Shown in pieces: positions 11,996 through 64,000 of a stretch of 64,000 bases of DNA. The stretch is taken from assembly GCA_001599915.1 (NCBI GenBank), contig BCIG01000001.1, positions 1,256,573 to 1,320,572 on the forward strand. Direction: 5' to 3'. The position numbers and the translations under genes were made by a program. Position 1 is the stretch's first letter, and the number at the start of each line of letters is the position of its first letter. Under the pieces are notes generated by a model, which saw nothing but the letters and a program-made list of their open reading frames with translations, searched no databases and had not been told where the DNA came from. This DNA is from Symbiotaphrina buchneri (Eukaryota; Ascomycota; Symbiotaphrinales; Symbiotaphrinaceae).

Positions 11996-14900
11996 ATGGA
12001 TCCACCAAATCTGCCAGGACGAGGACCCCCAGGAAGCCAGCGGCATGGCTCGTCTACCGGAGGTTCCTCCTACGATAGCGGATCTCAACCAAGAGCGGAG
12101 CAATCTGCGTCTGAGCACCATACCAGACAAGAACATGGGGCGCACTCGCATCGAGCAAGTGCTGCCCGGCAGATAACTCGGACAAGGACAAGCTACAGTT
12201 GTCAGGCCTGTAGGCGGCGCAAGGTCAAATGCGACAAGGTCAGTGGCTGAGCTCGGTCCGAGGTGAAGATGTGGTTGACAAGATCAAGGCTCACCCTATT
12301 TGTGGAGAATGCTCAAAGAATGGCGAGCAATGCGTATATGGTAGCGGGGCTTCAGGCTCAGCACCTACAGCGGCCCCCCTACAGTCGCAAGCTACCAGCT
12401 CCACATCAGAAAGCGGCGGAAGCACCCCTGCCGGTCCTTACCAATCAAGGGTCATGAGTGCTGAAGAAGCGCAACGGAATATCAAGCGACAACGAACATA
12501 CTCGGGCAGCTTGACGTCTGGAGGAGACTTCACGGTGAATACATCCCTGGCTACCACACCCGTGACCGGCACCGAGGCGAAGGATATTGAGAGCCGCTTG
12601 GATCGTCTTACAGCCATGGTCGAGCAGCTAGTTCGAGCTCAGCCAACGCCTCCCGCAAACGTCGAATCTATGCCTCAGCAAGCACCATACTCCCGTGGTC
12701 GGTTACCAAGCCCACAGGAACAGCGCAAACGTGGCACAGAAGGTCTCGCGCACCCTGACCCTAAGCAGATTGGGAGTCTACGAGGGTTCCCCATTGAGCG
12801 GACCTTTTCTGCACCGCCACGTATGGAAGAGGAAGAAGATAGCGGTTCGGAGGATACTACCGCGAGACGTGCTTCCTCTGGGAGTGACATGAACATAGGC
12901 CACCTGGCCCTCGAAGGAAGTGGCCGAAGCAGCTACATAGGCAATACATATTGGGCGTCAATCTATGACGAGGTAGGGCTGAGAAAGAGAGAAAGAAGAG
13001 GATAGAGCCGAATTGCTGATTTGCAAAATATACAGGTCGCTGAGTTGAACCAACTATTACGTGATCAGAGCCGGTATCATAATCCTTCTGATCCCCGCCG
13101 ACCCACCGTCCAAACTAGACCACAGGAACCAGGCACAGCGGCAGCAAGAGGTACATCTGCGTCGTCGTTACGATTTCAAGGCGAGGATATCCGGTCGTCT
13201 GGGAACCCGCTCGAAGCTGATACCAAGAAAGTCAACCTTTTGCAGCCGCAGGACCAGTCGACTACGTCCCGGTTTTATAGGATTCTTCCGGAGGTGCTGG
13301 CGAACCTGCCATCCAAACGCCAATGTGACGTTCTCTACCGCGCATATATGCAAGGTGTCCACCCAATCATGCCAATGGTTCACCCGCCGGACTGCCTGGA
13401 AGACTATAATGACTTTTGGAATTGGTTCGATAAGCATGATCATGGTTCAGTAGCATATGCGAAGCCTAGCTTCATCCCTCTTCTTTATGCCATTTTGTAC
13501 GGTGGATCAGTCAGCTGTCCGGTGAAAATCCTGGAGGCCGAATTTCGTGAATCGAGGTCACGCCTGTCACATCGGCTCCATGATGAAGTTACCAGATCAC
13601 TGGCAATGGTTTCTTTCCCTCGAACGCCATCAATATACTCACTCTGTGCATTCTTGATCGTCCAAAGTATACTGATGAGGGAAGAAGAGCCTATGGTTTG
13701 CTCGACATTTGTCACGCTCGCTTTGAGGGTGGCTCAGTCGATGGGCCTACATCGTGACGGTGCCAGATTCGGCCTTAGCTCCTTTCAAACCGAGGTGAGA
13801 CGGAGGGTGTGGTGGCATATTGTCTTTCTCGATACTATGATCGCAACGACTCTAGGTCTTCCGCCGTTAGTCAACCTGGATTACGCCGACTGTGCCGATA
13901 TCAGTGAGTTGAAAGACAAGTGGGTTGGCACGGACATTGGTAAAGCATATGAAAGAGAAATCGCACTGGGCCAGAGAGAGCCCCCTGTGGCTGATGATGT
14001 GTTGGCCGGAGAACACGATTCCATGGTATGTCCGAGTGGCTTGTATACACAGGCCAAGGTCTATAACACGAGTAAGTGCTTCCTTGACCAAGTCTCCGCT
14101 GTTACCTCCGAGTATTTCCCCCAAATTGGAGCGCTGGTCCCATGCTTTGATGCAAATGTTACACGTGTACTAACGTCTGCGTAGCTGTACTCAAGAGGAT
14201 CGATCGCACACTACTTGGAGTTCGGCCTATACTGGTCAAAGATGTGCAGAAAATCCAGGAAATATACAATAACTGCAGAGACCACATGTTGGCTATTGTG
14301 GAGAGAGTCCCCTGGGAAGGGAAACCGGAGACGGATTTGTCATTGGACATCGACGCCCGTGTGCAAAGCTTCCTGGAGACGCACCCCTTATCAATTTCAG
14401 GGCCTGTAGATGGGACGGAATGGGATAAATTGACCGAGGCACAGCCTTTGGACAATATCACTGAACAAGAAATCCTGTATCAGCGCGAAAGTTATCTGGC
14501 GTTCCCTGCGTGGGTCAGAATAGTAACATCGTTGCTTATTGATAAGGTAAGCTTTTATTGCCCTCAAGAGCAAGCCACATCGGCTCACGGGGACAGACCT
14601 TCTGTGTGTCTTATCAACCATTCTTGAAAACAAGCAAGAGTCAGATGTGGAAGGTGTACCGAGAACGGTAAATTGGATTCCCGAAGGAATGACAATGAGG
14701 AACTGGAAGCTGACAATTCGCAGCGCCATCAAACATTGCCATGCATATATGGATAAGTTCATCCTTCTGACGACAGTCAAATGCTTCCAGCCATTTCAAT
14801 GGAGCTGGCCAGGGTTGGTGTCTTCCCTCCTCGGTCCTTTATTGAGTTCAAGAGCTGATGGCTGATGGTCTTCTCAGGAATCATCAGCCTATGCACGCGG

Positions 14901-52585: not shown

Positions 52586-53237
52586 TCAGGAAGATATGCT
52601 GTTACGCCTGCCGCGCTTCTCATCAGCAGGATAGGCCTCATGTAGACACATGTTCCTCTTCGCCACAACTGTAGAGACCACACCACATTAGCGTCCTTCT
52701 CTTTATCACAACCCCCACATATGCAAGAGGCGGTCGCGGCAGTCGCGGCGGCACTTACTCCACCTCGCCTGCAGCTTTATCTTCGTCTCCTCGGTCATGC
52801 TCTTCGGCACATGCCACTCGATCGTCAGCCACCCGTTCGGCATCTCCTTCCAGATCGGCACCACGCTGGTAACGAGCTCGCCCGCTAGCTCACCCATGGC
52901 GACCTAAACCATTCGCAACGCATGTCAGGCAACTTCTCGTTTAATCTCTATGCTTGCAATCGGGTAATGTGGTGAGGGAGGGAACGTGGCGTGGGATGAT
53001 TGGGTGTGACGAGGTTTTGGGCTGACTCACGATGATGTCTCTGAAGGCTTGGATGGTCGGATGTTTGGATGGTCGCAGGACCCCGTTGTCGTCGTAGCAG
53101 CCGGGCCAGTAGTCGAGCTGCGCGGCGTCGAAGGAGAGCCGGTTCCAGATGACGGCCAGCCAGGTCTGGACGTCGGTGGCCGGAAGACTGCTGGGAGGAG
53201 TAACGGGCATCGCGGGCAGAGCGGGTTGTTCAGTCAT
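52586..53237 (-). CDS. Orphan small protein A (tandem family of three)
   Basis: Three exons: 53237-53031, 52903-52759 and 52668-52586, giving 144 aa. Exon 1 carries IWNRLSFDA, then 13 residues to GVLRPS. Exon 2 (145 nt) carries LAGELVTSVVPIW and LTIEWHVP. Exon 3 is a short basic tail. The introns are phase 0 (127 nt) and phase 1 (90 nt, GTAAGT, with CTAAT branch). The same motif, intron positions and phases recur in genes B and C. If the last intron is not used, the protein ends at 52706 (134 aa). No signal peptide or membrane segment. I do not recognise the family. Confidence 0.6.
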
Positions 53238-53984
53238 GAGTTTGGAAGTTGCGGAGGAGAGCTCCAGAGGATTGAGGGAGAGAGGATGATGTGGAGAGGG
53301 CAGGAGGTGACGCGTGGGAAGATATTAGGTGGATGGCACTCGAGCATGCTGGGCGGTATTCACTGCTTGCTATTGTGATATTGGGATTCACTGTGGTGAA
53401 TACAAGCGTGTTGAGGACGGGCGTGGGAGATGATGGACTCGATATGATGAGGCAGGACTATTCACTGCTGGTTGAACAGGTCCGTTGCAGACGGACAGGA
53501 GTAGAAGAGGGTGATTGAACGAGTCGACGGTGTATCTATAGTAGATCTATTACGGGAGATCGATCTACAGTGCGTGGTAGATGAGGGAGTTTGGAGTCAT
53601 TCTGCTATCTAATAATAAGGACCTATCTATGATATAATGGCAAGTTTAGTGAGACATTCTGCTGGATGATTATTGTTTCTTAGAACTGTCCAAAGCAACG
53701 GCACTGTAGGCAGGTCCAGGACCTGCTGGCCAGCTCTCAGAGCTCGTGGCCGCCGAGGAAGTGGTCGAAGTCTCTCGAAAAGACAATCCCACTAATGCTT
53801 TTGAGGGGAGATACCGATCGACCCCGCTTCTTTGTCCATCCTTTCCTTCCAGAAATTCAAGTCCCTCACGATAAACACGAAAGGACAGTTCCGTTTGGCG
53901 GTACACGTGTGTCCAGTCGTCTTGTGGAGGTTGCGAAGCAGACCATATCCGCCGTGATGACGCCGTTGATGTTCCAATACGTTC
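53238..53984. other. Gap between orphan gene A and decayed ORF
   Basis: Promoter of gene A. Overlapping minus-strand frames at 53670-54007 (MYRQTELSF..., MLCLPRCEN...) could be remnants of the adjoining decayed ORF, but none has support of its own. Confidence 0.35.
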
Positions 53985-54786
53985 TCACATCTTGGAAGAC
54001 AGAGCACCGGATCCCACGGATAGTTCGGATAGTTCGATTTGTGGCGTATGCCCAGTGAGCTTCATATATCTCAAAGTTGTCACTGTTAAAATCCGGCCGA
54101 CTAGATTGTCATCCACGGACAGGATCTCCGATATGTGGACCGTTTTCCAACCATTTTCGCTAGTAACCCATGCCCAATATAGATCCGAGGTCGAGAAATG
54201 GTTGAACAATCGTGAAAAACTAAACCCGTTTGATGTAAAACAATCTTCTGATGCCATCGCAAGCAGTATTCGATGGTGGATACTGTTCTCCAGTTCTTCA
54301 CGACTGAGGCGTGTATCTCCAAGGATCTTCTCATGTAACGACAAATGTGAAGTTTGATTAATAAGATTTGAGAGGTAGAGCACGACCAGGGACTGTACCA
54401 TAGGGGCCTCGGTGTGGGTCACACCGGCCAACTCCTCGTCGCTCAGGAAGCAGGGGGCCTGTACCGGCTTGTTTTGGCCTGTATCGGCGCTACGGTAGTT
54501 CTTATGATCTGGATGGAAGAAGCGACCCTCCTTATGTCGAATATCAGAACTGGAGACGAAAGCCCAACGAATCACGATAGGTTGGCCGATCAAGAAAGTC
54601 TATCAGCTCCGGATCCCTTGCCTGAGGTAGGTTCCCGCCGTATGCCTCGACGGCAATCTTGTACGCCGAGGGGCTTGATCCCTGCAGGAACCTGACAAGA
54701 CCGTCCAGATAGATGTGAGGCTCCAGAAAAGACCGTTATTGTCCGAAGAAAGGGCGTACGCCCTGCTGCTGGAAATGACCTGACAT
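53985..54786 (-). pseudogene. Probable decayed orphan gene (fragmented ORF)
   Basis: From ATG 54786 the frame reads MSGHFQQQGVRPFFGQ, hits TAA (54738-54736), then stays open for 63 codons (RSFLEPHIYLDGLVRF...) to TGA at 54546-54544. An overlapping second frame continues to 53985 with about 200 coding-like residues (SDLYWAWVTSENGW, LSREELENSIHHRIL). No GT..AG intron joins the pieces convincingly. Either it is a gene decayed by a stop and a frameshift, or my splicing failed. No known domain; no visible similarity to genes A-C. Confidence 0.3.
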
Positions 54787-55022
54787 TCTGAATTGATTTG
54801 ACGTTAGGCTGATGCCGATCAACTGATTTGGTTGACAGAATGAGTGCCTTTCATGATAGAGCAGCACAGGGCGTGGAGATGAAAGAGGAGCAGGTGCTGG
54901 TGAGAGAAGAGAAAACTTTATACAATGGAGAGAATAGACTCAGAAATTATAATTGGAAAAGCACATGAGATACTTACAATACAGTCATAGTGCCTCCGGA
55001 TGACATCTGTTGAGCTCTGGCT

Positions 55023-55539
55023 CTAGTGGTCGTTCACTCTGTCGGTCCTCCCACGGCTCAGATCGACCCAGAAAATGCGCGGCGAGCCTGACGCCCTCGT
55101 CACGGCCGCTATGAAAATGATATCAGCCATTTGTTATTTTAATGGCGACAGTGATGTCCAACGAACCGTATGCTGCCGCCCACTCTGCGTATCTCTCCAA
55201 AATCAGGGCTCGCGGCCCACGCCATGTAATGCATAAGGACCCATCGTATCTACGGGCCCATAGTGGAAACATCTTAGAAGCATCGGCGCCGAAAATCTCT
55301 GCGCATATACGCTAGCAACATTAGTAAGGAAAAGTACGAGCTAGGAGGTTTATACTTACAATATAATTGTGATAGTCCCGAATGTTGTCTGAGGACATAT
55401 CAAGGAGCCCATCAGGTGTGCGGTGGTCGACTAATATATGCCTTCGAAGCGCATCAAAGCAAAGCCTGGTCCAGACTGTCTCAATATAGAATGCGCTGAT
55501 CATATCCGACATGGACAGCTGTGCTGTGGAAAACGCCAT
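55023..55539 (-). CDS. Orphan small protein B (tandem family of three)
   Basis: Three exons: 55539-55360, 55311-55167 and 55108-55023, giving 136 aa. Exon 1 carries VWTRLCFDA, then 13 residues to GLLDMSS. Exon 2 is exactly 145 nt, as in gene A, and carries FGADASKMFPLW and LCITWRGP. Exon 3 (86 nt) is a short charged tail. Introns: phase 0, 48 nt (GTAAGT..CTAG with TACTAAT branch) and phase 1, 58 nt (GTTCGT..ATAG with CTGAT branch). Start taken at MAFSTAQLSMSD, the first true ATG. Family and function unknown. Confidence 0.6.
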
Positions 55540-56179
55540 GATCTCGAGCAATATGGGTAAATAGAGGTAAATTGTTTTGCTTGATAGGGTGACTTCTGAA
55601 GAAGTGTGTAGATCTAGAGAAGAGTGTAGACGTGGAGAACTGTCGATATGTGGAAGATTGGGATGATAGCCGTTGAAATGGAGAATTCTCTCTGGAGATA
55701 TATTCGAAATACCACGCTGCAGAATATAATACTAAGAAACCAACCAGGAAAAGTTCCGGGAATAGCCCCTGGATTTATATCCACCAGAAGCGGGGTTGCC
55801 ACTACAGAGTAGAAATGACTGGACCACGTTTGCACTGAATAGCAAACAATGAGGAATGACTGGGAAGCTCCACAATAGCAGTTATTGTTAGGAGGGACAC
55901 GCAAACAATAAGCTGGAAGAGTCACCACATAGAAAGTTAGTCTGTGAATGAGGCTTGATGTCCTAAAAATTGTTTGCCTGATCATTGGACTCAGCAAATG
56001 AGTCAAAAATCACTGTCCAGCGCTATCATCTGCTATTGCCGTTGGTAGGTAACGCCTTCCAGTTTTGGCCCGTCTCAGGGCAGAATTGAATATTGTACAT
56101 AAGCTTTGTCGGAAGAATAGAAATCTTTGCCATCCAGACAGTGGCTGTAGAGTCCCTAGAATATCCTTCGTTGTGACAT
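55540..56179. other. Spacer between orphan genes B and C
   Basis: Promoter of gene B. A minus-strand open frame (55614-56006) is hydrophobic, but lies in the expected promoter and has no domain. Confidence 0.4.
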
Positions 56180-56695
56180 TCAACCTTCAAGACGAAACTC
56201 ATCCTCCTTGCGCTCCCGGCGATCGCGTTGTTGAAGAGTATCCTTCCTAGCTTAGAAAACAAGATCAGCCAGTGCCCACAAGAAACAAGAATACCCATTT
56301 CTTACACTGCTGGTCCATCTGCTCCAAACGAACTTTAATCTCCTGCACGACAGGCGCAGGGCCGATCCAAGTAATCGTGACTCCCTGCTCGTTCTCGTCC
56401 CATTTCGCAACCATCAGCGTCGCTTTGATATCGTAGATTCCCGCCATCTCCGCCTTGAACTCAGAACAAGTCAGTTCCTGAACAGTGCGCTACAGGAGAG
56501 ATAGGGAGAGTAGGGGGTAAGACTTACCACATGGCCATAGAGGTAGTTCAGATGCCTTGAGGCGCTGGGATCAAGCAGGCCCTGCTCGTCGTGGAAGCCA
56601 TGGAAGCAGTACATGGCTTGGGCGTCGTATGAGAGCCGAGCCCAGATTGTGTCGATCCAGACTTGCTTGAGGGCCGCGGCGAGGGACATGGTCAT
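56180..56695 (-). CDS. Orphan small protein C (tandem family of three)
   Basis: Three exons: 56695-56528, 56453-56306 and 56250-56180, giving 128 aa. Exon 1 carries IWARLSYDA, then 13 residues to GLLDPS. Exon 2 (148 nt) carries AEMAGIYDIKATLMVAKW and VTITWIGP. Exon 3 (71 nt) is a highly charged tail (RKDTLQQRDRRERKEDE). Introns: phase 0 (74 nt, with CTGAC branch; a 50-nt alternative acceptor at 56478 would add 8 residues) and phase 1 (55 nt, GTAAGA..CTAAG). Aligns with A and B without gaps across the exon 1 motif. Family and function unknown. Confidence 0.6.
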
Positions 56696-57518: not shown

Positions 57519-58217
57519 ATGGCACAATCTATCCATCTCAAAGACCTGCCTCTCAGCGAATCCTTCTACCGTCCCCGAGGTCTGCGTTCGGATATCCTCG
57601 TCGACATCACCCATGGCAGCGATGGTGACATCCGCGTACCTCTACCACCTCACATGCTAGTCACCATGACGCTGAACGAGATCTGCCGCGCCACCGACAA
57701 AGGCAAGTTCTACGTCGGGTACAGCCAAGAGGAAACAACCCGGGCGGGCGTGCACGAGACCTGTGACCTAGTCTACATCGTGTCCGACTGGAGCATCAAC
57801 GACGAAAGAGAGTACGACCGGGGCACCCACTACGAGCGGCTCCTAGATGCCATGATGCGCAATATCGACCCCGGCTGCGTCGTGTTTCCGCTCAAGGTCG
57901 TTGTCAGCGAAACCAAGATTGAGAAGACGCCCTTCTGGGATGCTAAGGCGCCGTGCTCGGGTATCTTGATTTTCGATCCTGAGCCCCATCTCTACATGCG
58001 TAAGGACTTTGCGGCGGTCCAGGGTGATGCTTGGCCGGGGTACTTGCATAATGATTTCAGTATCAAGGAGCATCGTGAGCTGTATGAGCGCTCGGCTTTG
58101 CCCTCGAATGAAGCGGTTGTCCATACCCTATGGAAATGGCTCTTCAAGGATGATGAGGAGCCGAAGGGCATGTACTTCATGCGGCAGATCGTCAATGGTC
58201 CTGAAGTGGAAAAGTGA
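57519..58217 (+). CDS. Orphan protein D, 232 aa
   Basis: Single open frame from ATG 57519 (MAQSIHLKDLPLSESFYRP) to 58217. The sequence is coding-like (balanced composition, charged loops) with an LYMRKDFAAVQGDAWPGYL stretch and a C-terminal helix VVHTLWKWLFKDDEEP. No signal peptide, membrane segment or repeat; I recognise no domain. It sits beside the A-C family on the opposite strand, but shows no visible similarity to it. The frame extends upstream of this ATG without another ATG, so the start is reasonable. Confidence 0.6.
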   Translation: MAQSIHLKDLPLSESFYRPRGLRSDILVDITHGSDGDIRVPLPPHMLVTMTLNEICRATDKGKFYVGYSQEETTRAGVHETCDLVYIVSDWSINDEREYDRGTHYERLLDAMMRNIDPGCVVFPLKVVVSETKIEKTPFWDAKAPCSGILIFDPEPHLYMRKDFAAVQGDAWPGYLHNDFSIKEHRELYERSALPSNEAVVHTLWKWLFKDDEEPKGMYFMRQIVNGPEVEK

Positions 58218-58787: not shown

Positions 58788-61034
58788 ATGTCTTCAGCGT
58801 CGGCGTCCGCAGATGCGACTCCAGATACAACAGCAGATACGGCAGAGCCTCCAGCAGAAGGCGGCCCCTCAGCCACAGCGCATTTACAGGGCAGTGGCGG
58901 CAGCGGTGGGAGTCCTGCTCCGGAAATCCACAAACGCGCGTGCGCCCGCTGTCGGGAGCGCAGGATCAAATGTGACCGCGTACACCCGTGTGCTAAATGC
59001 GTCAAGGCCGGCGTGAACTGCTGGTTTCCCGAGCGGAAGAAGCGGCGGCCCGCGACACGCAAGGTCGATCCTAAGGCGGCGGCGGATAATGCGTTGTTGA
59101 CGCGGTTGGCTCGCCTGGAGCGGACGATTGAGAAGTTGAGTAAGGGCGAGGGAGTGCCTGCACATGCGGCGCATGAGGATTCGTCACATGAGGAGGATGA
59201 AGGCGACGAGACGGACCCGGCGGATGAGTTAGAGCAGAGCTTTGGGAGGCTGTTGATTGGGGATGGCGCGAGTCGCTATGTCAACGATTCGTTCTGGGCG
59301 AATGTGGGAGATGAGGTACGTCGAGAGCAAGGACATCGAGGACATGGACCACTGACACTCACGTCCTACAGGTCGAGAACCTTAAGGAAGCGTTATTGGG
59401 AACGCCGTCGCATTTGACCCCTCCAGCTGTCAGGGAAGAGTCACAGGCCACACTGCGAAACTTTCTCTTTGCAAGCCATGGCATAAATGGTCCATTAGAC
59501 CTGAAATCGTTCCATCCGGATCCAGAGAGAATGGACCTGTTATGGCAGATCTACGTCTCCAATGTCGACGCACTAATAAAAATATTACATGTCCCTACTT
59601 TCGACGTTCTGTTATGTCAGGCGAAAGCGGACCTGTCTATCCTCGATCAGAACAACGATGCACTTTTCTTCGCCATATACCACGCCGCCATCATTTCACT
59701 CTCTCCGAAACAATGTTTGGAGTTACTCCATGAACCAAAGGAAAGGCTGGTAGCAAGACATCGACAGGCATTAGAAGCGGGGCTGGCTCGGTGTCGAGCT
59801 ACTAGTACCCTGAAGCTCACGTCCTTACAAGCATTAGCTCTATTTCTGGTAAGCCCATTTTTTTTATATGCAACCGTTCCATGCTAACGGTTACCAGAAT
59901 ACCGCCGTTGCTTTCTCCGACCATAACTTTGTCTGGACTGTCACTGCAGCAGCGATCAGGACAGCTCAGATTCTCGGTTTACATCACGATGGTTCCGCTT
60001 TCAACCTTACGCCTTTCGAGATCGAGATGAGACGTCGACTCTGGGCGCAGATATGTATTCTCGACAGTAGAACCAGCGAGGACACAGGCTTGGATCCTAT
60101 AATAACGACAGGCTCTTTCGACACCAAACCGCCGCTGAATATCAACGACTCGGATATTTTCATGGCAAGCGAGCAGCTCCCTCCCGAGCGAAAAGGGATC
60201 ACGGACACGACCGTCTTCCTTCTGCGCACGCACATGGGGCTGCTGTTCCACGACTTGGCCTCACTCCCGTGGGGTGGTCATAGCACGCTCGAGTCCCGCA
60301 CAAAGCACAAAGAGAGGCTGTTGAAGAAATGCGAGCGCCTGATCTCCGAAAAGTACCTCAAAGACGCAGACATGGACTCCGACATCGGCCAGGCATGCTC
60401 CATACTATACCACATCCTCGCCTCGCGCGCACGCCTCGTCATCTACCAGCCCTTCCACAGCCGGCGCGCCGGCTCCGGCCTCTCGCAAGAGATCAAAGAC
60501 AATCTCTTCGAGAGCAGCTGCGCGATCCTCGAGATCCAGCAGCGCGTTGAACACGGCAGTGTCCTGGACCGCTGGAGTTGGCTACCTAAAGCTTTCGCGC
60601 AGAGACACGCGCTGGCGTACCTTCTGATCGAAGTATGCCGCCGCCGGGACCGCGCACAGCTGGATCGCGCATGGGCTTGCATTGACTATGCGCTGGATAG
60701 CCTGCGGAATAACGCCAACACGTCGAATACGGATGATCGTGCGGCGTCGAAGGGGCTGGAGAAGTTGATCCAGAAGGCGCTTGCCCTGCGCTGGACGCAT
60801 CATGAGCCGGGGCTGGAGACGTCCGCGCCGATGGATGTCCTTGTTGATGCGTTTGAGCATACGAAAGACCCGAGGGTGTACATGCCGGGTGATGGACTTT
60901 TCCCGGTCCGGGATACGGATACGCCTGTCCAGATGGATGGCACTCCTACGCAGGTGGATGGAGAGATGGCGGAAGCGGGCGAGGAGAGCATGGCGATTAA
61001 CCTGGCGGAAAGGTTCTTGACGACGTGGCTTTGA
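58788..61034 (+). CDS. Zn2Cys6 transcription factor
   Basis: Three exons: 58788-59315, 59372-59848 and 59898-61034, giving 713 aa; introns of 56 and 49 nt. The zinc cluster is near the N-terminus: C52-x2-C55-x6-C62-x5-C68-x2-C71-x6-C78 with RERRIKCDR and a basic KKRRPATRK linker. A short coiled coil follows (LLTRLARLERTIEKL, about 100-117). The fungal-specific transcription factor domain covers roughly 220-560, including RTAQILGLHHDG and MRRRLWAQICILDSR. The C-terminus is acidic. It lies on the same strand, 0.95 kb upstream of the EAR-repeat gene, and might regulate it; that is an inference. Confidence 0.9.
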
Positions 61035-61988: not shown

Positions 61989-63869
61989 ATGTCCTCATCC
62001 CATTGCCTCCTCCAACTGAAGCAATCCCTCCCCACAAGCGGCGCACGCGCCCTTGCACCCTTCACGATCGACGGGCAGACCTACCTCGCCATCCCACAGC
62101 TAGCCTACGACATCCCCGCCCAAAGCCCTAACATCAACGGCGGCAACAGCAACACCCCGCTGCTCATCTACCGCTACAACACCGCCACCTCCATCTTCGA
62201 AGAATGGCAGCAACTCCCCGTGCCCGGCGGCGAGGACGCCGAGTTCTTCTCCATCGCCGGCCGGAAATTCCTCACCACCGCGAGCCTGCGCTCCGGGGGC
62301 GGCGGTGCGGACGCGTACGAGATGGACGTGCAGTCTATCATCTTCGAGTGGAAAGCCGACAGGTTCGTCGAGTTCCAGCGCGTGCGCACGTTCGCGGCTA
62401 AGCAGTGGCGGTATTTCGCGCTGGGCGGGCGCCATTTCCTCGCGCTGGCGCAGGGAGTCGTGCTCCCGGGCTTGCAGGCAAAGGCGGCGGCGGAATCGTG
62501 CATCTTTGAGTGGGATGGGCAAGGGTTCCGGAAATTCCAGACGGTGCCCTCGGTGTGGGGGTATAATTTCTTGCAGTTTCGATGCGGCGGCGAGGAGTTT
62601 CTGGCGTATGCGGATCATGAAATGCCGTCGTTGGTGCTGCGCTGGGATGGGCATGCGTTTGTGTCGTTTCAGACTCTGCAGGGGAAGGGAGGAAGGGCGT
62701 TTTGTTTCTTTGAGGAACGTGGAGAGGCGTATCTTGCTTTTGCGAGCTTGATGCAGGACAGTGTTGTTTATCGCTGGGAGCAGGGAACGTTTGTGGTCCA
62801 TCAGGTGCTCGAGGGCCCTGGAGCTAGGGAGTTCGAGGTCTATCAGCGGGATGGGGAGACCTATGTTGTTCGAGTCAACTTCATTACCGGCACGAGGGAG
62901 GATCCGAATCCTTCGCTGGACTCCGTCGTCTACCGCCTCGAGGAGGGGAAGTTGAAGGTTGTGTCGACGTTCCACACCAACGGCGCTACAGATGTCAAGA
63001 TCTTTACAGTTGGGGGAGAGACTCTTACAGCTGTCTCAGAGAGCCTTTCAAAAAATATTCGCTTCCGCACCGATACACATATTTACAGGTTCCAGCCGGA
63101 GGCATTTGCATCAGGCGTAGCAGACCCGAGCATTTACCAAGACCTTGACCTGGTCGCCCTCTTCGAGACTTACACTGCCACACCGAACTGCATCGGCGCT
63201 CAGCTCGCGGACTCTATCATGAAGACGACAGCAGAGTATCCACTGCTTGTTGCCACTGCGACCGACCTTGTCCTGTACCCTGGACGTGGCCGTTTGCCTT
63301 CTTTCCAGAGCTTTCGACTTACATCACGTGGGTTCAAGGAGTTGACGGCTGTCTCGCATCTCGGACCGGCGTTGGCTTCTTTGGTCAATATGTACAACAT
63401 AGATCCTAACGGCAACTGGCGGCAGGAAGCCGAGAGATTACTAGCAGCCGTGATTAAGGCGCGGAAGGCCAATTCCTTGGACTTATGGCGTAACAAGATC
63501 GCAGTGGAAGCTTACCGTGGACGCGAAGAAGCCATCACGGCAATGCTGGACTACGGCTGTGCCTTGACTATCAAGTTCCTGGAAAAGGTCCTCGAGGATC
63601 CCACTAAGCTGACGGCAGAGTTTCTCCGCGAGGAGTATTTGGAAGCCAAGGGGAACACCCTTGCCGGTGAAATCCCATTCAACGCCGTCATGATCGCCAC
63701 TTTCTTCCTGACTGGCCTAGACATCTCCTTCCGGATCACACGCTGGCTGCACGAACAAGGCATCGACTTGGCCAAGGCCATGGTCGTCATCGTCGGACAG
63801 CAAGGCGGGCCCACATCCGGAGTGACCGCAGCCACGAACTCTGTTTTCCAAATGATCCGGCAAGCATAG
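61989..63869 (+). CDS. EAR/EPTP-repeat beta-propeller protein with unknown C-terminal domain
   Basis: Single exon, 626 aa. Residues about 8-370 contain seven EAR/EPTP repeats of 45-60 residues. Each has the pattern FxxxQxLxxxGAxxxxxFxxxGxxYLAxA... followed by an SxIYRW/F strand; examples are FQRVRTFAAKQWRYFALGG, FRKFQTVPSVWGYNFLQF and SVVYRWEQGTFVVHQVL. Seven repeats is the count in the animal proteins LGI1 and TSPEAR, predicting one complete seven-bladed propeller, usually a protein-binding surface. Residues about 380-626 are mostly helical and unrecognised (QEAERLLAAVIKARK, FLREEYLEAKG, NAVMIATFFLTGLDISF). There is no signal peptide, so unlike its animal counterparts it is probably intracellular. 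Function unknown. Confidence 0.8.
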   Translation: MSSSHCLLQLKQSLPTSGARALAPFTIDGQTYLAIPQLAYDIPAQSPNINGGNSNTPLLIYRYNTATSIFEEWQQLPVPGGEDAEFFSIAGRKFLTTASLRSGGGGADAYEMDVQSIIFEWKADRFVEFQRVRTFAAKQWRYFALGGRHFLALAQGVVLPGLQAKAAAESCIFEWDGQGFRKFQTVPSVWGYNFLQFRCGGEEFLAYADHEMPSLVLRWDGHAFVSFQTLQGKGGRAFCFFEERGEAYLAFASLMQDSVVYRWEQGTFVVHQVLEGPGAREFEVYQRDGETYVVRVNFITGTREDPNPSLDSVVYRLEEGKLKVVSTFHTNGATDVKIFTVGGETLTAVSESLSKNIRFRTDTHIYRFQPEAFASGVADPSIYQDLDLVALFETYTATPNCIGAQLADSIMKTTAEYPLLVATATDLVLYPGRGRLPSFQSFRLTSRGFKELTAVSHLGPALASLVNMYNIDPNGNWRQEAERLLAAVIKARKANSLDLWRNKIAVEAYRGREEAITAMLDYGCALTIKFLEKVLEDPTKLTAEFLREEYLEAKGNTLAGEIPFNAVMIATFFLTGLDISFRITRWLHEQGIDLAKAMVVIVGQQGGPTSGVTAATNSVFQMIRQA

Positions 63870-64000
63870 AAGGAGCATGACGGGGTCCGGGTTTGGCGGC
63901 AGAATCGACGGCCTCGCCGGCGGGGAGCCAATGGGCGGGCCGGACGCGAAGGCGGTGGCCGGTCGGGCGGCGGTACCGGGGTACCTGATGGGCCGAAAAA
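63870..64000. other. Right edge, 3' flank
   Basis: GC-rich 3' flank of the EAR-repeat gene, cut by the window end. No gene seen. Confidence 0.4.

What the first reader, a model, noticed from the sequence alone, without database searches (positions are those of the whole stretch)
52586..56695. Three-gene tandem family of unrecognised small proteins with conserved introns
Proteins A (144 aa), B (136 aa) and C (128 aa) lie on the minus strand within 4.1 kb. From the Trp of IW/VW they align without gaps: W-x-R-L-x-[FY]-D-A, thirteen residues, G-[VL]-L, then S at the same place. After a phase-0 intron at the same point comes a second block ending in [IL]-[TE]-x-[TE]-W-x-[GV]-P (LTIEWHVP, LCITWRGP, VTITWIGP). 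A phase-1 intron then leads to a short charged tail. Exon 2 is 145, 145 and 148 nt. Shared motif, intron position and phase show true paralogy; the low identity outside the motif suggests fast evolution. I know of no described family with this pattern.
Basis: partly seen in the sequence, partly recalled or inferred. Interest (0 to 1): 0.82.

Follow-up and report, generated by a model that had tools for sequence, protein, structure and literature searches.

The report
Four-gene family of small fungal proteins
Three neighbouring genes in an unnamed fungus, and a fourth one found near a chromosome end, are old copies of one another that appear to make small proteins of unknown function; similar gene families are documented in another fungus, so this is real but fairly ordinary.

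Summary
A, B and C read open at the stated places with the stated exon lengths and intron phases, and their similarity is far above chance (0 of 5000 shuffles for each pair). I found a fourth member, D, on another contig, 13.4 kb from a TTAGGG telomere, with the same motif spacing and the same intron phases. Seven of eight introns carry a CTRAY branch site, against 12% of background sites. No model in Pfam, NCBIfam, PADLOC or PHROGs and no PDB sequence matched with E below 0.04; no protein in the 5.8-billion set matched. That search needs shared 5-residue words, and five of six pairs within the family share none: "restricted to this fungus" is not shown. Weak models suggest a small helix-helix-hairpin-helix domain. 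Function is inferred only. Tandem, head-to-tail, strongly diverged orphan paralogues are documented for Neurospora (PMC2684829). Verdict: a real, apparently unnamed family of a known kind.

The parts
52586..53237 (-). Gene A, 144 aa; exons 53237-53031, 52903-52759, 52668-52586; introns 127 nt (phase 0) and 90 nt (phase 1)
   Evidence: Spliced reading with GT-AG sites and CTGAC / CTAAT branch sites; similar to B, C and D
55023..55539 (-). Gene B, 136 aa; exons 55539-55360, 55311-55167, 55108-55023; introns 48 nt (phase 0) and 58 nt (phase 1, weak GTTCGT donor)
   Evidence: similar to A, C and D
56180..56695 (-). Gene C, 128 aa; exons 56695-56528, 56453-56306, 56250-56180; introns 74 nt (phase 0) and 55 nt (phase 1)
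   Evidence: similar to A, B and D. It is the only member that finds all three others in the genome search (compare)
53124..53147 (-). Motif W-x-R-L-x-[FYL]-D-A of gene A, in the region modelled as helix 1 (same block in B at 55473-55450 and in C at 56644-56621)
   Evidence: Alignment A2. In a genome-wide motif scan (11 matches) the four family genes are 4; the other 7 were read and rejected
53985..54599 (-). Not a family member: unrelated open frame between A and B, probably a gene remnant
   Evidence: No Pfam hit at E 0.01; 62% identity over 58 aa to a frame on contig C23

Best explanation
A-D are four genuine, old paralogues making small (128-144 aa) proteins without a detectable secretion signal. 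Shown: homology, exon-intron architecture by sequence (no transcript data), three members head-to-tail on one strand and the fourth near a telomere. Inferred with weak models: the core is helix 1 (W-x-R-L-x-[FYL]-D-A), a loop with G-x-L, helix 2 crossing the first intron, a beta hairpin with W-x-[GV]-P, and helix 3. The invariant residues (W, R, L, D, A, G, L, G, W, P) look like core and turn residues, with R and D possibly bridging, rather than like a catalytic set. The third exon is a divergent, probably disordered tail. The most likely working is non-enzymatic: a small intracellular binding or adaptor domain whose core is kept while surface and tail diverge, so that each copy contacts a different or changing partner. 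The family arose by tandem duplication, with one copy moved to or from a subtelomere. My estimates: real family of working genes 0.95; small globular alpha/beta core 0.7; non-enzymatic adaptor role 0.3.
For: Pairwise shuffles: 0 of 5000 for all 6 pairs, z 8.7 to 22.8. Intron phases 0 then 1 in 4 of 4 genes; exon 1/2 junction at alignment column 77, 77, 77 and 76. One CTRAY branch site 9-21 nt from the acceptor in 7 of 8 introns, against 430 of 3550 background YAG sites with one 6-50 nt upstream, binomial p 2.7e-6. Protein similarity persists where DNA similarity is almost gone (one 27-bp blastn match between A and C), which argues for selection on protein. Exon-2 model of C: hairpin plus helix, mean pLDDT 81. 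No hydrophobic N-terminal stretch in 4 of 4 members in the rough scan.
Against: The whole-protein model is poor (pLDDT 62, pTM 0.41) and was made on B with its first intron read through and with some fragment rows misaligned. No PDB fold matched with E below 0.001. No expression data. D lacks a charged tail and D's first intron lacks a CTRAY site. B's second donor is weak. In A, one 19-residue stretch at residues 68-86 has mean hydropathy 1.71, just above the customary membrane cut-off of about 1.6 (cut-off recalled); B, C and D reach only 0.97, 0.89 and 0.54, so I read it as a buried helix, but solubility of A is not certain. Nothing tested here bears directly on a binding role.
Confidence: 0.5

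Rival explanations
1. The family is a diverged branch of a wider fungal domain family, possibly named elsewhere, that these tools could not reach; only its sequence divergence makes it look unknown.
For: Five of the six pairs of members share no 5-residue word, so the protein search could not have linked those members to each other. No fungal genome could be searched apart from the window's own (one search states that it has no relatives here). The positive control shows that fungal proteins are in the set, but its hits with a fungal name were at best 55% identical among the 120 listed, so close relatives of this fungus may be missing.
Against: Pfam HMMs, which do not depend on exact words, gave nothing for 4 of 4 members except one E 0.13 match. 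PDB profile hits were all E 0.39 or worse.
Confidence: 0.4
2. A selfish or rapidly evolving conflict family (spore killer, incompatibility or toxin-antidote type): small, clustered, subtelomeric, diverging copies.
For: Small proteins, tandem copies, one copy 13.4 kb from a telomere, low identity.
Against: No sequence match to any model of Pfam or PADLOC. The same features also describe ordinary orphan families. No sign of recent turnover: the copies are old, with DNA similarity almost gone.
Confidence: 0.07
3. Secreted effector-like proteins.
For: Size and tandem arrangement are typical of fungal effector families (recalled, not from a call).
Against: No hydrophobic N-terminal stretch: best 10-residue mean hydropathy within the first 40 residues is 0.27 to 1.34. 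Only 0 to 3 cysteines. No dedicated signal-peptide predictor was available.
Confidence: 0.04
4. Chance open frames or decayed pseudogenes, the motif being coincidence.
For: A and B are separated by what looks like a gene remnant; B has one weak donor site.
Against: 0 of 5000 shuffles for 6 of 6 pairs; intron phases 4 of 4; branch sites 7 of 8; every spliced frame is open from ATG to stop.
Confidence: 0.02

Closest known systems
Tandem paralogous orphan genes of Neurospora crassa (Kasuga et al. 2009, PMC2684829; abstract and section 7 read)
   Same: Paralogues mainly of each other, adjacent, head-to-tail, strongly diverged (mean identity 36.1% there, 17-30% here), clusters near chromosome ends. 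There 385 of 2,219 orphan genes had a paralogue, for 250 the best one was another orphan, 82 of those pairs were adjacent, and 73 of the 82 were head-to-tail.
   Different: Different organism and no sequence comparison with those genes was made. Orphan status here is not established. The A-C cluster is not shown to be subtelomeric.
Pfam, NCBIfam, PADLOC, PHROGs (model libraries)
   Same: Nothing: no member matched any model with an E-value below 0.04.
   Different: Best matches were Znf_XAF1_N E 0.13, TIGR02290 E 0.048 and phrog_3613 E 0.11, each in one of 4 members and read as chance; PADLOC gave none.

Membership tests
Tandem orphan gene families of filamentous ascomycetes | Paralogues within the same genome | tested here: met
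   Four members; 0 of 5000 shuffles for each of 6 pairs
Tandem orphan gene families of filamentous ascomycetes | Adjacent, head-to-tail copies | tested here: met
   A, B, C all on the minus strand within 4.1 kb; a remnant frame lies between A and B, so only B and C are strictly adjacent
Tandem orphan gene families of filamentous ascomycetes | No homologues outside the lineage | tested here: inconclusive
   None found, but the search depends on 5-residue words that the members themselves mostly do not share
Tandem orphan gene families of filamentous ascomycetes | Subtelomeric location | tested here: inconclusive
   D is 13,362 bp from the end of a contig that closes in a TTAGGG array. Contig C1 ends in a dispersed repeat, not a telomere, so A-C are undecided
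Tandem orphan gene families of filamentous ascomycetes | Accelerated sequence evolution | not testable with these tools
   Needs orthologues; the window's genome has no relatives in the genome search
Any curated Pfam-A family | Score above the curated cut-off | tested here: not met
   4 of 4 members below all cut-offs
Secreted fungal effectors | N-terminal signal peptide | tested here: not met
   Hydropathy scan only, 4 of 4 without a hydrophobic N-terminal stretch; rough test, no predictor at hand

The most novel reading that the evidence does not exclude
A-D define a new small protein domain (helix-helix-hairpin-helix with W-x-R-L-x-[FYL]-D-A and W-x-[GV]-P signatures) with no structural relative, held in a lineage-specific family that spreads between an internal cluster and subtelomeres.
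Probability: 0.15. Interest if true: 0.5.

Novelty: new member of a known kind. Interest (0 to 1): 0.3.

Why it matters
It adds a clean, testable example, with shared introns, of how small unannotated fungal genes multiply and diverge past recognition. Protein search by exact words would fail on most of it even within the family, which is a practical warning for calling genes orphan. If the core proves to be a new fold it would merit a domain entry; if not, it is ordinary.

Tried and rejected
More members: a genome scan for the exon-1 motif gave 11 matches, 4 of them A-D; the other 7 were translated and, read by eye, none continues like the family. The reversed-pattern control gave 2, so the 7 are somewhat more than that control predicts. 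A scan for the exon-2 motif gave 4 matches, B and D plus 2 that fail; its control gave 3. That pattern was written to fit B and D, and cannot match A or C. C17:212284 (WLRLRYDA, later GLPLPS) was the nearest miss; it was rejected because it has 19 residues, not 13, between DA and G, no Met between the upstream stop and the motif, and no hairpin motif seen downstream.

Relatives elsewhere: IMG/VR had 16 pattern matches, none confirmed; GTDB genomes had 1, not confirmed; each scan used one peptide pattern from exon 1.

Fold: Foldseek against PDB gave 0 of 267 and 0 of 342 matches at E 0.001. The best were E 1.2 for the whole model and E 0.49 (Avs4, probability 0.57) for exon 2; these and the KH, PadR, MADS and coronavirus nucleocapsid matches are read as noise.

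Shared surroundings: apart from A-D, five blastp hits between open frames of the window and the C7 end had E 5e-4 to 0.007; they are short and in frames without other support, and I accept none.

Species: GH11 xylanase was looked for as a marker and not found.

Literature: (four answered searches, listing 0, 6, 12 and 3 papers) showed no paper that I recognise as describing this family, judged on titles and abstract openings; only PMC2684829 was opened. A motif cannot be searched as text, so this is weak evidence.

Mended on checking: the end of the motif in gene A (53124), the length of B's read-through (14 residues), the identity of the best named control hits (55%), and the hydrophobic stretch in A, which I had left out.

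Full report
What is there. The window is the last 64 kb of contig C1 of a 23.4-Mb, 82-contig fungal genome. On the minus strand, genes A, B and C read open with two introns each. I confirm the observation.

Is it more than chance? Yes. Smith-Waterman scores exceed all 5000 shuffles for each of the six pairs among A-D (z 8.7 to 22.8). Core identity is 21-31% and full-length identity 17-30%. DNA similarity has almost vanished: one 27-base blastn match between A and C, E about 0.05. Differences per codon position in exon 1 of A-C are nearly equal at all three positions (0.45-0.64), which fits saturated synonymous sites. Seven of eight introns carry exactly one CTRAY branch site 9-21 nt before the acceptor, against 430 of 3550 background YAG sites that have one anywhere 6-50 nt upstream (p 2.7e-6). 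The exception is D's first intron. The two acceptors of C are AAG, not YAG, so for them the background is only approximate.

A fourth gene. Searching the whole genome with C gave A (E 7e-4), B (E 0.06) and a new place on contig C7 at E 0.012. Read on the minus strand there, D has an ATG, the block WARLSLDA, thirteen residues, G-S-L, a phase-0 GTAAGT...CTAG intron, the block VYVEWLGP, a phase-1 GTAAGT...TTAG intron and a 29-residue tail. Its exon 1/2 junction lies one alignment column from that of A-C, and pairwise shuffles support it (z 8.7, 9.3 and 11.7). D starts 13,362 bp from the end of C7, which ends in TTAGGG repeats. Each of the four proteins was used as a genome query at E up to 10, and no fifth member appeared; A, B and D each found only themselves and C. 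Two motif scans left no further candidate. Only 3 to 6 candidates were scored per genome query, so four is a minimum.

What it is not. Pfam gave 1 weak match in 1 of 4 members (E 0.13), NCBIfam 1 in 1 of 4 (E 0.048), PHROGs 2 weak ones (E 0.11, 0.19), PADLOC none, and PDB sequences nothing better than E 0.39. The 5.8-billion-protein search gave none of 285 candidates at E 1 for A-C and none of 2229 at E 10 for A-D. As a control, the neighbouring EPTP-domain protein found 1168 relatives at E 1e-20 among 7999 scored candidates, and the 120 listed include named Trichoderma, Fonsecaea, Talaromyces and Penicillium proteins, so fungi are represented. But one search shows that A-B, A-C, A-D, B-C and B-D share no 5-residue word, and only C-D shares one. 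The search would therefore not have found most members from one another. Absence of hits excludes close relatives only.

How it may work. AlphaFold2 on exon 2 of C (4 sequences) gives a short helix, a beta hairpin and a helix at mean pLDDT 81, pTM 0.47. On B, read through its first intron, it gives helix 10-32, helix 51-66, helix 73-89, strands 91-96 and 102-107 and helix 110-123 at pLDDT 62 and pTM 0.41; the second and third of these helices are probably one helix interrupted by the 16 intron-encoded residues 61-76 (my inference). Neither model matches a solved structure. The invariant residues are mostly of the kind that build cores and turns. A rough hydropathy scan shows no signal-peptide-like N-terminus in any member; A alone has a stretch (68-86, mean 1.71) at the customary membrane cut-off, in the part aligned with helix 2. 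I therefore favour a small intracellular binding domain with a variable tail, but at low confidence, since nothing here tests function.

What it is like. Kasuga et al. (PMC2684829; abstract and section 7 read) describe for Neurospora crassa 385 of 2,219 orphan genes with a paralogue, 250 of them with another orphan as best hit, 82 such pairs adjacent, 73 of these head-to-tail, mean identity 36.1%, concentrated near chromosome ends; they also cite subtelomeric enrichment of orphans in Aspergillus. The family here fits that kind. Whether it is orphan, and whether A-C are subtelomeric, remain open: contig C1 ends in a dispersed repeat with at least 36 places, 18 of which start within 400 bases of a contig start, not in a telomere.

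Verdict. It is unnamed in every library I searched, now has four members, and is of a kind already known in filamentous fungi.

Noticed in passing
window 53985-54599 (-): Open frame of 204 aa between A and B, no Pfam match, 62% identical over 58 aa to a frame on contig C23 (208145-208318); I saw no obvious gene structure around it and read it as a remnant.
   Followed up: partly
window 61989-63866 (+): 626-aa EPTP/DUF5624 protein; many of its closest relatives are about 1070 aa and carry an alpha/beta hydrolase domain as well. The frame here stops about where the contig-end repeat begins (63855-63867), so the gene may be cut short. One listed relative is named as bacterial (Rhodospirillales).
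   Followed up: partly
window 63867-64000 (+): Repeat present at 36 or more places in the genome, 18 of them starting within 400 bases of a contig start; it probably broke the assembly.
   Followed up: partly
window 57519-58214 (+): Intronless 232-aa frame divergent to gene C, no Pfam match at E 0.01 and no paralogue found in the genome.
   Followed up: partly
L015 7483-8001 (-) (G000 C7 821482-822000): AAA_11 helicase-like frame about 3 kb from gene D, near the telomere of contig C7.
   Followed up: no
window 13006-14181 (+) and 59853-61031 (+): Two frames sharing 43% identity over 56 aa; the second holds a Fungal_trans transcription factor domain.
   Followed up: no
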